The notes below the pieces were generated by a model. The model did no database searches. It saw nothing but the letters and a program-made list of their open reading frames with translations, and was not told the origin of the DNA. The translations under genes and the position numbers were made by a program. This document shows positions 6,149 through 58,105 of a DNA stretch of 64,000 nucleotides, piece after piece (the stretch's first letter is position 1; every line of letters begins with the position of its first letter). Origin of the DNA: Prevotella sp. MGM2 (GTDB taxonomy: Bacteria > Bacteroidota > Bacteroidia > Bacteroidales > Bacteroidaceae); the NCBI RefSeq assembly GCF_002933955.1, contig NZ_BEWW01000284.1:1-64000 (forward strand). Direction: 5' to 3'.

Positions 6149-6384
6149 ATATTGTACCATATTAATTGCAGCGGAAACGCGTTTCTTGAGCGTTTCACCT
6201 CCAATCATGACACCGTCCTTTGAGTAACATGAGCATCTGACACTTTTTCACAAACAAAAAACTGTATTTTATATTTATTTATATATTATTAAACAATTCA
6301 CCCTATAAAAACTTTCTAAATCTCTGCCACCATTGACAGTACAAACTACTAGAAACCTAAACCCAACAACAATACTGAAGAAAA

Positions 6385-6432
6385 AATTACAATACGGGAA
6401 ATTCAAATTGCAATACGGGGATTTTTTATAGA
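6385..6432 (-). repeat. fragment of the 263-bp repeat family (copy F)
   Basis: Only the part matching the 3' hairpin of the intergenic repeat is left: attcaaattgcaatacggg followed by gattttt, as in copies B and D. AATACGGG occurs twice here in direct orientation, so the hairpin of the full copies cannot form. No promoter or GC-rich hairpin flanks it. The rest of 6205-6484 shows only AT-rich sequence. Confidence 0.45.
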
Positions 6433-16070: not shown

Positions 16071-16333
16071 ATTAACATTTTTAACTTTCCGTTACATTTG
16101 AGAGTCATGTTTTCCCGACTCCTAGTATTGAAGTTAGGAAAGTCCGTATTGAAATTTCAACTCGAATCCTTGGACTTTAAATTGCAATAAGTGGAATTTT
16201 CATAAAAAACAGAGCGAGAAACGGCTGGAATATGGCCTGAAAACACTGGAAAAGCGGGACATCCCAATGGGAAGTCCCGCTTCGCTATTACAAAGATACA
16301 ACATTTTCGCCCCAAAAGCAAAGTGTGTTAAAA
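16071..16333 (-). repeat. 263-bp intergenic repeat, copy A
   Basis: This copy is 263 bp, bounded by ATTAACA (16071-16077) and TGTTAAAA (16326-16333). Read on the minus strand it has the promoter TTTG (16319-16322), 20 nt, TATCTTTG (16291-16298), then a hairpin at 16253-16281 with GCGGGAC arms, then a 3' palindrome at about 16143-16195 that is weaker than in copies B and C. It fills most of the gap between the hydrolase and galE and is transcribed against both. It is most similar to copy B. Confidence 0.8.
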
Positions 16334-21719: not shown

Positions 21720-21843
21720 AAATCATGCTTTTTAAAGAAAGCAGAAAGAAAATACGTGAAAAGCGGGGTTCCCATTAAGGAATACCCCGCTTGGCTGTTA
21801 TTGACATACGACATTTTCCGCCCAAAAGCGAGAAATGCTAGAA
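21720..21843 (-). repeat. truncated, decayed repeat copy E
   Basis: The promoter half of the 263-bp repeat, read on the minus strand. The GC hairpin is at 21762-21791 with arms AGCGGGGT/ACCCCGCT: two base pairs differ from the other copies and both changes are compensated. The -33 and -7 positions have mutated (CTCG, and TATGTCAA at 21801-21808), although the 20-nt spacing is kept. The 3' half is absent; rpsP and its terminator lie where it should be. The remaining 21844-21997 shows only a weak GAGGC/GCCTC palindrome. Confidence 0.65.
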
Positions 21844-31899: not shown

Positions 31900-32024
31900 T
31901 TGTTCTGTAAGGTACATAATATACGGAATTGAAAATCAATTACTCGTTGGTAATTGGGAGATAAGGAATTTTTGCGTACCAATATTTGGAGTTATAAATT
32001 AACGCATTTTAAATATAACAAAAC

Positions 32025-32139
32025 GTTAAAAACATTAATATTGAAATCACTTTTCAACCGGTTCATTCGTAGAGGAAAGGAAAAAACGATGTGCTGATAA
32101 GTAGAGTTTTACAGAGGTTAAAAGATTAACATTGAAATC
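32025..32139. repeat. pair of 23-24 bp direct repeats upstream of mazG
   Basis: GTTAAAAACATTAATATTGA (start of 32025-32048) and GTTAAAAGATTAACATTGA (32117-32139), both ending in AAATC, are direct repeats 92 bp apart. They share TTAAAA..TTAA with the tails of the 263-bp repeats, which may be chance in such AT-rich sequence. Confidence 0.35.
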
Positions 32140-37716: not shown

Positions 37717-39804
37717 ATGAATTACATTTCCTGTGCGCTACGCGTGAAAGTCGTGCCCCGTACATTCCGGTTCAGACAACCAGCCGGAACATCGCGCGGT
37801 GTTTACCGTGAGCGACGGGTGTGGTATATAGTTGTCACCTCCAGAGAGCATCCCCACTGTCTGGGAATAGGGGAATGCGCTCCGCTCTACGACTTGTCGT
37901 GCGACTATGACATTCATTACGAGGAGCGGCTGAATGTTTTCTGTGCCGCCTACGAAAAAAAACGGGTGATTGATTTTGAAACCCTGCGTTCCTATCCTTC
38001 CATCCTGTGCGGACTCGAAACGGCCGACCGCTCGTTCAAAGCCTCCATTGCCGGTGGCAACTACCTGCATCTTTACGACACTGCCTTTACGCGTGGCGAG
38101 GAAGGAATACCCATTAACGGACTGGTGTGGATGGGAAATTATGAAGAGATGCTGGCGCGCATGGAAGAGAAACTGCAACTAGGCTACCGCTGCGTGAAGC
38201 TGAAGATAGGCGCTATAGACTTCGAGAGCGAGCTGAGTCTCATACACCGGCTCCGGTCGCGATACAGTCGCGAAACCGTGGAACTGCGTGTCGACGCCAA
38301 TGGGGCTTTCAAACCGGAGGAGGCTCTTCACAAAATGGAGCGCCTCTCACGGTACGACATTCACAGCATAGAGCAGCCCATCCGTGCCGGACAGTGGGAA
38401 AAGATGGCTGAAATTTGCCGCAGCACGTCCCTGCCGGTGGCGCTCGATGAGGAACTGATCGGAGTGAACCGGACAGACCGGAAAAAAGCATTGCTCGATG
38501 TCATCCATCCGCAGTATATCATATTGAAGCCTTCATTGCATGGCGGCTTCAGCGGATCGGAGGAATGGATTGCGGAGGCCCGTCTCAGAAATATTCCATA
38601 TTGGGTAACCAGTGCATTGGAGAGTAACGTAGGATTAAATGCCATAGCCCAATGGACAGCAGCACTCATGGAGAAAGAAAGCGGAGGCAATGCCGCCGTT
38701 CCACCCTTGCCTCAAGGATTGGGAACTGGACAACTTTTTGTGGAGAATTTTCCACAAACAACATTGCATATTTCAGGAGACAGCCTGTGGAATGCCGATG
38801 AGCGGCAACGCCGCTTCTTAGAGGAAGTCAAAAACTTTTCCGATCTTTGGCATAACGGCGAGCCGACTCTCACTGTGCATACTTCCGGTTCGACGGGTGT
38901 TCCTAAAGCTATCATGGTTGAAAAAAAGCACATGGCGGCAAGCGCCCGCATGACGTGCGACTTTCTGAAACTCTCTTCCGGTAACGATGCCTTATTGTGC
39001 ATGCCTATACAGTATATAGCCGGAAAAATGGTAGCCGTGCGTGCCTTTGTCAGAGGACTCAGGCTTGTGCCCGTAGCCCCTTCCGCCCACCCTTTCAAGC
39101 ATCTGCACCATGCGCCTGTTTTTGTGGCGATGACACCGATGCAGGTCATGCAGACACTTACAGTGCCGCGTGAGGCCGCCCTTTTGCGTCAGGTCAGACA
39201 TCTGCTCATAGGCGGTGGCGCCGTGAGTGATGAACTGGCGGACAAGCTGCGCCGGTTCCCTCATGAAGTATGGAGCACCTACGGCATGACCGAAACGCTT
39301 TCACACATAGCCCTTCGGCGTCTCAGCGGTTCCGGAGCTGCGACAACCTATACTCCGCTGCCAGGAGTGAAAGTGAAGCTGGCTGAAGACGGCTGCTTGG
39401 TTGTTGACGTACTTAAATTGGGAGTGCATCAACTAAAAACCAATGATTTGGCTGAAATTCATTCAGACGGAACCTTTTCTATAGTCGGTCGTAGTGACAA
39501 TGTGGTGTGTTCCGGAGGCATTAAATTGCAGATAGAGGAATTGGAACAGCGGCTGGCGTTACATCTGGATGTTCCGTTTCATTTAACGGCCGTTCCCGAC
39601 AATTTACTCGGTCAGGCTTTGACCTTATTATATGTAGGCGCCCCTGAAAAGGCCGCTGAAATAAAGGACCTCTGCCGAAGACTGTTTACACGGTATGAGG
39701 TGCCCCGCCATATCTTTGCTGTCGGCAATCTGCCTCTCACCGAGACCGGCAAACCGGCACGTAGTGCATTCAGACGTTTGGCAGAAGAAATGATGACACA
39801 CTGA
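37717..39804 (+). CDS. Fused MenC-MenE (O-succinylbenzoate synthase / OSB-CoA ligase)
   Basis: A single 695-residue frame joins two menaquinone enzymes. Residues 1 to about 345 are an enolase-superfamily OSB synthase with all catalytic positions: K161-x-K163, metal ligands Asp193, Glu219 and Asp244, and Lys271 in LKPSLHGG. Residues from about 375 are an acyl-CoA ligase: HTSGSTGVPK (388-397), STYGMTET (Tyr522), NDLAEIHSDG, GRSDNVVCSGGIK and a C-terminal TETGKPARSAF with the adenylation lysine. The ligase half is about 320 residues, shorter than usual MenE because the N-terminal subdomain is reduced. Both reactions are consecutive (SHCHC to OSB to OSB-CoA), so the fusion is metabolically sensible. 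No stop, frame change or internal start is needed. Confidence 0.92.
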   Translation: MNYISCALRVKVVPRTFRFRQPAGTSRGVYRERRVWYIVVTSREHPHCLGIGECAPLYDLSCDYDIHYEERLNVFCAAYEKKRVIDFETLRSYPSILCGLETADRSFKASIAGGNYLHLYDTAFTRGEEGIPINGLVWMGNYEEMLARMEEKLQLGYRCVKLKIGAIDFESELSLIHRLRSRYSRETVELRVDANGAFKPEEALHKMERLSRYDIHSIEQPIRAGQWEKMAEICRSTSLPVALDEELIGVNRTDRKKALLDVIHPQYIILKPSLHGGFSGSEEWIAEARLRNIPYWVTSALESNVGLNAIAQWTAALMEKESGGNAAVPPLPQGLGTGQLFVENFPQTTLHISGDSLWNADERQRRFLEEVKNFSDLWHNGEPTLTVHTSGSTGVPKAIMVEKKHMAASARMTCDFLKLSSGNDALLCMPIQYIAGKMVAVRAFVRGLRLVPVAPSAHPFKHLHHAPVFVAMTPMQVMQTLTVPREAALLRQVRHLLIGGGAVSDELADKLRRFPHEVWSTYGMTETLSHIALRRLSGSGAATTYTPLPGVKVKLAEDGCLVVDVLKLGVHQLKTNDLAEIHSDGTFSIVGRSDNVVCSGGIKLQIEELEQRLALHLDVPFHLTAVPDNLLGQALTLLYVGAPEKAAEIKDLCRRLFTRYEVPRHIFAVGNLPLTETGKPARSAFRRLAEEMMTH

Positions 39805-39957: not shown

Positions 39958-40221
39958 TTTTAACATTTCTTGCTTTTGGCTTGAAAATATATTATCTTTG
40001 TAACAGCAGAGCGGGGCTTTCTAATGGAAAGTCCCGTTTTTTCTGTATCTTTCAAGCCTTTTTGTACAGAAATCCGTTCTATTTCTGTTCAAAAATCCCC
40101 GTATTGCAATTCAAATTCCAAGTATTGGTGTTAAAAATCCAATAAGGACTTTTCCGCCACCACTACTTACAACCTATGTTTTAACACTCCTAAGTGTTTC
40201 AAAAAGTTAAATATGTTAAAA
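39958..40221 (+). repeat. 263-bp intergenic repeat, copy D
   Basis: 264 bp between TTTTAACA (39958-39965) and TGTTAAAA (40214-40221), an exact 8-bp terminal inverted repeat. On the plus strand: TTG (39970-39972), 20 nt, TATCTTTG (39993-40000), then a hairpin at 40011-40036 (GCGGGGCTTTC/GAAAGTCCCGT, two G:U pairs) followed by TTTTTTC, and a 3' element CCCCGTATTGCAATT...GGACTTTT at 40097-40153 whose stem is degenerate. It lies between the men operon and the AICAR transformylase gene and points toward the latter. Confidence 0.8.
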
Positions 40222-49151: not shown

Positions 49152-49413
49152 TTTAACATTTTTAACTTCCGACAACACTTAGAGGCGCTAAAAAATAGGT
49201 TTGAAACTATACTGTGAAAAAAATCCGTATCGGAATTTCAACTCGAATACTTGGAATTTAAATTGCAATACGGAGATTTTTCAGGAAAAACAAGATGGAA
49301 AACGGCTGTAATATGGCCTGAAAACACTAAAAGAGCGGGACTTCCTAATGGAAAGTCCCGCTCCGCTATACAAATATACAACATTTTCTACACAAAAGCA
49401 AATAGTGTTAAAA
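49152..49413 (-). repeat. 263-bp intergenic repeat, copy B
   Basis: 262 bp between TTTAACA (49152-49158) and TGTTAAAA (49406-49413). On the minus strand: TTTG (49399-49402), 20 nt, TATATTTG (49371-49378), a hairpin at 49334-49362 (AGCGGGAC/GTCCCGCT with an inner TTCC/GGAA), about 60 nt of linker, and a 3' hairpin at 49224-49274 (TCCGTAT..ATACGGA) followed by seven T (49217-49223). The unit predicts an RNA of about 150 nt. It occupies the gap between two converging genes. Confidence 0.85.
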
Positions 49414-57412: not shown

Positions 57413-57693
57413 AAAAGTGCTCGACAAAACCCTCCCTGAAATTGTCCGAAAGGATTTTCACAACCAGTTCCCGCACAATTCTGAAAGGTTATTCCTGCTA
57501 AACGGTCCGGACATTCACCTAATGTGGTCCGCAACCATATCAGTTGCAAACTTACACAAAAGTTTTGGATAGTAAACATTACATAACGAGTTTAATTTTT
57601 GTTCAGTTAAATTAAACGCCATCCCACGTCCCGGCAGACAAAGACCTTTTCCTATTTCCGGTTCCGATCACCGTCAGTTTTCCCAACAGCGCA

Positions 57694-57956
57694 TTTTAAC
57701 ACTATTTGCTTTTGCTCGCCAAATGTCGTATATTTGCAACAGCGGAGCGGGACTTTCCATAAGGAAGTTCCGCTTTTTCAATGTTTTTCAAGCGTATTTA
57801 CAGAGATTTCAGCCGTATTTTCCCATCAAAATCCCCGTATCGGAATTAAAATTCCAAGTATTCGAGTTGAAATTCCGATACGGACTTTTCACACGACAAC
57901 CGATACAACCTATACTTTAACACTTGAGAATGTAACGGAAAGTTAAAAATGTTAAA
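57694..57956 (+). repeat. 263-bp intergenic repeat, copy C
   Basis: 263 bp between TTTTAACA (57694-57701) and TGTTAAA (57950-57956). On the plus strand: TTTG (57705-57708), 20 nt, TATATTTG (57729-57736), a hairpin at 57746-57774 (GCGGGAC with one G:U pair, followed by TTTTTC), about 60 nt, and a 3' hairpin at 57835-57883 with a perfect 13-bp stem CCGTATCGGAATT/AATTCCGATACGG and ACTTTT after it. It predicts an RNA of about 145 nt. It lies between two minus-strand genes and points away from both promoters. 57413-57693 otherwise holds only the PBP promoter. Confidence 0.85.
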
Positions 57957-58105
57957 GCTAAACTTCCGGCCAATATCTCCCGGAAACGCCATCCGCCTGT
58001 AGCAAACGACCGAAAAAGCCCAGCGCGACATACAGGAAACACTTACTAAAACACGTTTTCCGCCTTCACAAGAAACCCGTTGGGTCATCCATACCCCCAA
58101 CAACA

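What the first reader, a model, noticed from the sequence alone, without database searches (positions are those of the whole stretch)
57694..57956. Multi-copy 263-bp intergenic unit with its own promoter, 5' hairpin and terminator: candidate new small-RNA family
Copies A (16071-16333), B (49152-49413), C (57694-57956) and D (39958-40221) are 262-264 bp long although their sequences have diverged. Each has TTG/TTTG, exactly 20 nt, and TATMTTTG; a GC-rich hairpin about 10 nt after the box; about 60 nt of linker with a shared TTTTCAaGCC-like segment; a second hairpin CCGTATTG...ATACGG with a T-run (clearest in B and C); and a conserved AGTTAAAAATGTTAA tail. The hairpins are kept by G:U pairs in C and D and by two compensated pair changes in truncated copy E. 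Constant length, conserved promoter and pairing-preserving changes argue for a transcribed, structured RNA of about 150 nt (or about 40 nt if the first hairpin with its U-tract terminates). The units sit in both orientations in unrelated gaps, so a regulatory link to one neighbour is unlikely.
Basis: partly seen in the sequence, partly recalled or inferred. Interest (0 to 1): 0.88.

Follow-up and report, generated by a model that had tools for sequence, protein, structure and literature searches.

The report
BOX-like modular repeat in Bacteroidales
The unit is one of roughly 150 scattered copies of a small, apparently mobile DNA element that carries its own promoter, an immediate terminator-like hairpin and an array of blocks set 21 bases apart, and related species carry their own differently spelled versions, so it looks like a new version of a known kind of bacterial repeat rather than a proven new RNA family.

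Summary
Copies A-D are real, and the genome holds roughly 150 copies: 150 of 150 scored candidates match the left-end model, 123 over at least 88 of its 91 bases. Of 87 copies examined, 86 keep TTTTAACA and 86 keep TTG-20 nt-TATMTTTG; of 83 with a recognisable right end, 72 are 260-264 bp long. Ten of 58 genomes of the genus have 8 or more hits of the promoter core; hairpin sequences differ between them, and a 21-bp period dominates the inner array in every species group tested. The 'small-RNA family' reading is only partly supported: neither hairpin covaries above shuffles, the second is often broken and looks like inverted array blocks, and the likely transcript is about 40 nt. Best reading: a modular, non-autonomous, MITE-like interspersed element of the BOX/BrickBuilt kind, unusual in keeping a promoter-terminator module and two-helical-turn phasing. 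No target duplication, empty site or transposase was found, so mobility is inferred from copy number, relics and distribution.

The parts
57694..57956 (+). Element copy C, the unit of the finding (262 bp TTTTAACA..TGTTAA plus one base)
57694..57701 (+). Left terminal TTTTAACA, intact in 86 of 87 copies
57706..57708 (+). TTG of the -33 element of a Bacteroidota-type promoter reading inward (consensus recalled)
57729..57736 (+). TATATTTG, -7 element, 20 nt after the TTG
57746..57778 (+). Hairpin 1 (stem 57746-57774) and T-run: intrinsic-terminator-like
   Evidence: the simple terminator scan did not list it
57738..57778 (+). Predicted short transcript, about 40 nt (inferred, not measured)
   Evidence: inference from promoter and hairpin positions
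57786..57918 (+). Linker and array with 21-bp periodicity (blocks ..nnGTATT.., last blocks inverted)
57835..57883 (+).
57941..57955 (+). Right terminal AGTTAAAAATGTTAA
16071..16333 (-). Copy A
49152..49413 (-). Copy B
39958..40221 (+). Copy D
21752..21843 (-). Copy E, left part only, -7 box decayed (TATGTCAA)
6355..6429 (-). Weak match to the array/right part; block-like repeats there, so a relic or divergent variant
31913..32041 (+). Weak match to the array/right part, probably a relic

Best explanation
The unit is a copy of a modular, non-autonomous interspersed repeat (a MITE-like element of the BOX/BrickBuilt kind) that has spread through intergenic DNA of this species, with separately evolved versions in nine other genomes of the genus. 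Anatomy: a left module (TTTTAACA end, inward promoter, terminator-like hairpin), a middle array of blocks repeated every 21 bp (two helical turns), and a right module (AGTTAAAWATGTTAA). Most likely working: an enzyme acting in trans recognises the ends, perhaps with the phased blocks as further binding sites on one face of the helix. The inward promoter is probably a relic or control signal of a parent element, and the hairpin stops its transcript after about 40 nt, which limits harm to neighbours. Shown: copy number, ends, spacing, promoter and hairpin conservation, 21-bp period, intergenic placement, species-specific versions. Inferred: movement, the enzyme, binding to the blocks, transcription and termination.
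For: Roughly 150 copies on both strands (59 and 73 hits). In 24 copies looked at, the larger neighbouring ORFs stop short of the unit or overlap it slightly, with 5' and 3' gene ends on either side. Flanking ORFs share no function: of 64 scanned (of 73 listed), no Pfam family is in more than 2. Relics in the window. Own diverged versions in nine other genomes: 10 of 58 with 8 or more promoter-core hits, reversed controls 0 in those 10, and promoter plus hairpin seen in sequences from each of the nine. The G031 version is uniform (89-99% alike over the left part at 31 further places, 40 of 110 candidates scored), the G000 version diverse (65-90% in 29 copies). Length steps 241/262/283 fit gain or loss of 21-bp blocks, as with boxB and BrickBuilt units. 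In G017 I see at least three kinds of outer ends around one core (20 stretches, by eye), as S. suis boxE/F and boxA/C surround the same boxB (PMC3049150 section 7).
Against: No target-site duplication: in 83 copies no offset stands out among 1800 comparisons (best 2 matches against 0.08 expected). No empty site shown: the ROK gene beside copy C was not found near the PBP gene in 29 relatives' loci, some cut by contig ends. No transposase with these ends found. Ends, promoter, hairpin and blocks are kept while the 42-bp linker is at 45% identity: an ordinary MITE needs little but its ends, so a further function is not excluded. 10 of the 24 copies have a short ORF (70-119 aa) running into the unit and one 485-aa ORF overlaps by 27 nt if its first start is used; I take these as chance. 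Mobility is inferred, not shown.
Confidence: 0.7

Rival explanations
1. A host small-RNA gene family: each copy is a gene for a ~40-nt (or longer read-through) RNA with a regulatory role, multiplied in the genome.
For: 86 of 87 copies keep the promoter spacing; hairpin z-scores below -2 in 86 of 87 copies and in 46 of 48 copies of seven other genomes; T-run only on the sense strand; multicopy sRNA families are known in Bacteroidota (FopS, 14 members; PMC11697453, passages).
Against: No covariation above shuffles; hairpin sequence differs between subfamilies and species; about 150 copies; ends and array outside the RNA are also conserved; no Rfam match up to E 5 at copy C.
Confidence: 0.12
2. 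A chromosome-wide set of binding sites for a species-specific DNA-binding protein (nucleoid or regulatory network), spread by duplication and kept by selection on the phased blocks.
For: 21 bp is the top period in the array of every species group though sequences differ; total length moves in ~21-bp steps; linker keeps its length at 45% identity.
Against: Only 10 of 58 genomes of the genus have 8 or more hits; some copies decay; no candidate protein identified; the linker alone peaks at 10-11 bp, and linker plus first block at 22 then 21.
Confidence: 0.12
3. REPIN/RAYT-like element moved by a Y1 (IS200-type) transposase.
For: Hairpin near one end, no target duplication.
Against: No Y1_Tnp (PF01797) match in the 94%-complete own genome; among the 10 element-rich genomes 5 have one, against 23 of 48 others.
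Confidence: 0.04

Closest known systems
BOX elements of Streptococcus pneumoniae, S. mitis and S. suis (PMC3049150; outline, abstract, 12 passages and section 7 seen)
   Same: Left module, variable number of tandem inner modules, right module; about 100 copies per genome (mean 122, 0.057 per kb, in pneumococcus; here about 150 in 2.88 Mb, 0.052 per kb); no fixed neighbour; restricted to few related species; different end modules around the same inner module in S. suis.
   Different: Sequence relation not tested. Here the inner blocks have a 21-bp period and the intact copies carry an inward promoter plus terminator-like hairpin.
BrickBuilt MITE of Porphyromonas gingivalis (PMC4596501; abstract, start of the text, sections 5, 8, 10 and part 1 of 7 seen)
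   Same: Bacteroidales; leader, tandem 23-nt repeats, tail, small inverted ends; intergenic; promoter activity; no Rfam match; inconsistent target duplications.
   Different: Ends GAGACCTTTGCA (IS5-like) against TTTTAACA/TGTTAA; 19 copies with 1 to 22.8 repeats against about 150 copies of near-constant length; BrickBuilt promoters act in both directions.
FopS paralogous sRNAs of Bacteroides (RF04319; PMC11697453, 12 passages seen)
   Same: Multicopy, canonical Bacteroidota promoter, terminator hairpin.
   Different: FopS has about 40 nt before its hairpin (model) and 12-15 copies per genome; the model does not match copy C at E up to 5.
Correia elements, RUP, SPRITE, REP/REPIN (PMC3049150 passages, otherwise recalled)
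   Same: Small interspersed repeats with hairpins, some with promoters or terminator-like stems.
   Different: I know of no 21-bp phased array in them (recalled); Y1 transposase not found here.

Membership tests
MITE (non-autonomous, transposase-borne) | Short, non-coding, many copies, intergenic | tested here: met
   Mostly 262 bp, roughly 150 copies, 24 copies between larger ORFs
MITE (non-autonomous, transposase-borne) | Terminal inverted repeats | tested here: inconclusive
   Five outer pairs (TTAAC/GTTAA) invariant in 29 copies, then imperfect; other species and subfamilies have other or longer ends
MITE (non-autonomous, transposase-borne) | Target-site duplication | tested here: not met
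   No offset stands out in 83 copies
MITE (non-autonomous, transposase-borne) | Autonomous parent with the same ends | tested here: inconclusive
   Of the right ends without a partner, those fetched lay near contig ends or in variant elements (20 places fetched, 6 read); genome not available as a file
BOX-type composite repeat | End modules around a variable number of tandem inner modules | tested here: met
   Lengths 241/262/283 and 21-bp period
BOX-type composite repeat | boxA/boxB/boxC sequence models | not tested
   BOX HMMs not at hand
BrickBuilt | Ends GAGACCTTTGCA / TGCAAAGGTCTC | tested here: not met
   Left end TTTTAACA in 86 of 87, right end TGTTAA-type in 83 of 87; BrickBuilt ends
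FopS / any Rfam family | Covariance-model match | tested here: not met
   0 matches at gathering in the window, 0 up to E 5 at 57600-58050
REPIN/RAYT | Y1 transposase in the genome | tested here: not met
   0 of 4 scored candidates in the own genome, 94% complete
Structured small RNA family | Covariation of stem pairs beyond chance | tested here: not met
   29 copies; between subfamilies and species the stem sequence changes and pairing stays, but these were not aligned pair by pair
Structured small RNA family | Transcript with defined 5' end | not testable with these tools
   No RNA data

The most novel reading that the evidence does not exclude
The elements belong to a transposition or chromosome-organising system not yet described: a species-specific DNA-binding protein recognises blocks set two helical turns apart, and transcription started inside the element and stopped after ~40 nt is a required step. 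The block sequence changes with the species' protein while spacing, promoter and terminator are kept, and cores are exchanged between different outer ends.
Probability: 0.2. Interest if true: 0.85.

Novelty: new variant of a known kind. Interest (0 to 1): 0.55.

Why it matters
It shows a repeat population of pneumococcal BOX scale in a genus of little-studied Bacteroidales (order inferred from the GenBank label of a related MAG named after a cow), with about ten species carrying separately evolved versions of one architecture. That gives a natural comparison for asking which parts of such elements are kept (promoter, terminator, helical phase) and which drift, and makes the unknown mobilising enzyme a searchable target. 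It also warns that promoter-plus-hairpin intergenic repeats can be taken for sRNA families.

Tried and rejected
Covariation as proof of RNA: tested on 29 copies for both hairpins, not above shuffles. Rfam: no match in the window at gathering, none up to E 5 at 57600-58050; in 14 related loci only tRNAs and a FopS beside, not in, an element. Phages and plasmids by blastn: no match for copy C, for a G031 copy in plasmids, for a G017 copy in phages. Viral contigs: promoter pattern one hit, directly before a tRNA-Met gene; hairpin pattern 0. GTDB contigs by promoter pattern: two hits, one the G001 element, the other before an ordinary gene. REPIN/RAYT: not supported. Target duplications: not found. 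Empty site at copy C: flanking pair not found together in relatives. One pattern search had a wrong spacer length and found 1 hit, repeated with the right length. Shared site in G000 L017 and G031 L249: same upstream gene pair and orientation, but one case among the loci compared is about what chance allows (my estimate); a second lead, L018/L234, was not the same site. One search's query covered only the left ~155 bp of the G031 element plus 283 bp of flank, so its counts concern that part. The second half counted wrong columns; corrected. CRISPR- or TIGR-like arrays were considered and dropped by impression, without a dedicated test.

Selection before counts: searches use 87 of the 150 model hits (58 of 60 fetched regions, two cut by contig ends dropped, 27 earlier loci, 2 window copies); the other 63 were mostly at contig ends or simply not taken, and one search scored only 150 of 2037 first-look candidates. 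Decayed copies are therefore under-represented, and the left end is part of the model that found the copies. Of the 150 hits 27 are shorter than 88 bases, so a copy broken between contigs could count twice. The 73 copies are those 258-264 bp long among the 83 with a right end. The 64 ORFs are 64 of 73 listed; 25 of 107 families were shown. The periodicity z-scores rest on 20 single-base shuffles, and the two smallest groups hold 4 and 3 sequences.

Full report
OBSERVATION. The four long copies are as described: A 16071-16333 (-), B 49152-49413 (-), C 57694-57956 (+), D 39958-40221 (+). Copy E is most likely the left part at 21752-21843 (-), with a decayed -7 box. Two weak matches are not in the finding: 6355-6429 (-) and 31913-32041 (+).

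COPY NUMBER. The window lies in a draft genome of 2.88 Mb in 329 contigs, 94% complete. blastn with copy C gave 47 matches with 40 of 236 candidates scored. A covariance model of the left 91 bases (R1) matched 150 of 150 scored candidates (2037 in the first look); 123 are 88 bases or longer, 27 shorter, mostly cut by contig ends. Pattern counts: left end plus promoter 96, reversed control 0; right end with up to one mismatch 173, control 12. So roughly 150 copies, about one per 19 kb.

ANATOMY. From 87 copies: TTTTAACA in 86; right end AGTTAAAWATGTTAA within 2 mismatches in 83; length 260-264 in 72 of these 83, otherwise 241, 251, 258, 269 or 280-283. An independent pairing of listed ends also gave a few of 221-255 bp (63 pairs). 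TTG-20 nt-TATMTTTG-like boxes stand in 86 of 87. That this is the Bacteroidota sigma-ABfr promoter form is recalled; PMC11697453 names such promoters for FopS (passages). About 10 nt later comes a GC-rich hairpin: z below -2 in 86 of 87 copies, followed by on average 5.0 T in 7 bases, against 2.8 A in 7 before the stem (73 copies). A terminator on the sense strand is thus likely; the simple scan did not list it. The predicted RNA is about 40 nt.

THE ARRAY. The rest of the unit is built of blocks of about 21 bp. Lag 21 is the strongest self-match in the array region of G000 (z 45, which stopped with an error after this line), G017 (35), G031 (19), G029 (12), G001/G066 (6) and G003/G070 (6), although block sequences differ between species. 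Against a clean picture: the G000 linker alone peaks at 10-11 bp, linker plus first block at 22 then 21, and the left part, meant as a control, also shows 43 and 21. It pairs in 86.7% of cells of 29 copies against 22.8-44.3% when slid, without covariation above shuffles; all outer 8 pairs form in 21 of 73 copies. The linker has 45% mean identity among 73 copies, against 79% (left), 70% (hairpin), 77% (blocks) and 63% (tail), yet the total length hardly varies. Distances in the left 44 bases are hardly correlated with those elsewhere (r 0.05-0.13), hairpin and blocks are (r 0.61): partly mosaic copies.

COVARIATION. For hairpin 1, 96.1% of cells pair, against 32.9-63.4% when slid, but double changes and covariation score are within the shuffles. 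Between subfamilies and species the stem sequence is different and a hairpin remains at the same place (z below -2 in 46 of 48 copies from seven other genomes). This supports a conserved function of the hairpin, most simply termination, not a conserved RNA sequence.

RELATIVES. In 58 genomes of the genus the promoter-core pattern (up to 3 mismatches) has 8 or more hits in 10 (G000 132, G017 62, G029 25, G003 19, G001 16, G079 13, G070 11, G066 10, G031 9, G069 8), 1-2 hits in 8, none in 40; reversed controls total 1. Some hits with mismatches may be ordinary promoters: the two G027 loci, for example, are followed by what looks like coding sequence. Sequences from each of the nine other element-rich genomes show promoter plus hairpin, several with block-like repeats. 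R1 matched 9 of 58 including the own genome; the single G016 match shows a hairpin without this promoter. In 393 genomes drawn from the order, R1 matched the own genome and once each in 2 others, with only 11 candidates scored per genome; both look like plain hairpins. In G031 13 aligned copies are much alike and extend further on both sides. In G017 I see at least three kinds of outer ends around the same core (20 stretches).

SURROUNDINGS. In 24 copies the neighbours stand in all arrangements and larger ORFs stop short of the unit or overlap it slightly; 10 copies have a short ORF (70-119 aa) running into it and one 485-aa ORF overlaps by 27 nt. Of 64 flanking ORFs (of 73 listed) no Pfam family is in more than 2; no transposase is among the 25 of 107 families shown. 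No target duplication in 83 copies. PF01797 is not found in the own genome. No empty site could be tested at copy C.

INTERPRETATION. High copy number, both orientations, relics, patchy and species-specific occurrence, block-number steps and differing outer ends are the marks of BOX and BrickBuilt repeats (PMC3049150; PMC4596501). I therefore read the unit as a new variant of this kind. What sets it apart is that promoter, hairpin and block spacing are kept more strictly than the linker between them; either these parts are needed for movement, or copies serve a host function. The data do not decide. I found no report of this family: paper searches (listings seen; one search listed 10 of 2,205) showed BrickBuilt, other P. 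gingivalis repeats, BOX and FopS, and nothing recognisable on this genus.

Noticed in passing
L069:1678-1747 (-), genome G070: A match to Rfam RF04319 (FopS sRNA, 66.7 bits) lies about 80 nt upstream of the R1 match of an element copy, so FopS-type sRNAs reach this genus.
   Followed up: partly
G031, e.g. contigs C32, C185, C187, C227: Other short repeats, some at 41-43-bp steps, recur within a few hundred bases of several element copies.
   Followed up: no
L017 (G000) and L249 (G031): An element sits just behind the same orthologous two-gene pair in the same orientation in two species; ancestral site or coincidence.
   Followed up: partly
L006 and L018 (G000): Two copies identical over the first 92 alignment columns but 55% alike in the next 44: mosaic, gene conversion, or an assembly chimera.
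   Followed up: partly
L093 and L111 (G069, G079): Element versions whose blocks repeat GTCGCCCAA-type motifs about 21 bp apart (by eye).
   Followed up: no
window 37717-39804: One ORF joins an enolase-like (MR_MLE_C) and an AMP-binding domain, a possible MenC-MenE fusion (name recalled).
   Followed up: no
L154:6493-6610 (-), IMG/VR contig: A Bacteroidota-type promoter stands directly before a tRNA-Met gene in a viral contig.
   Followed up: partly
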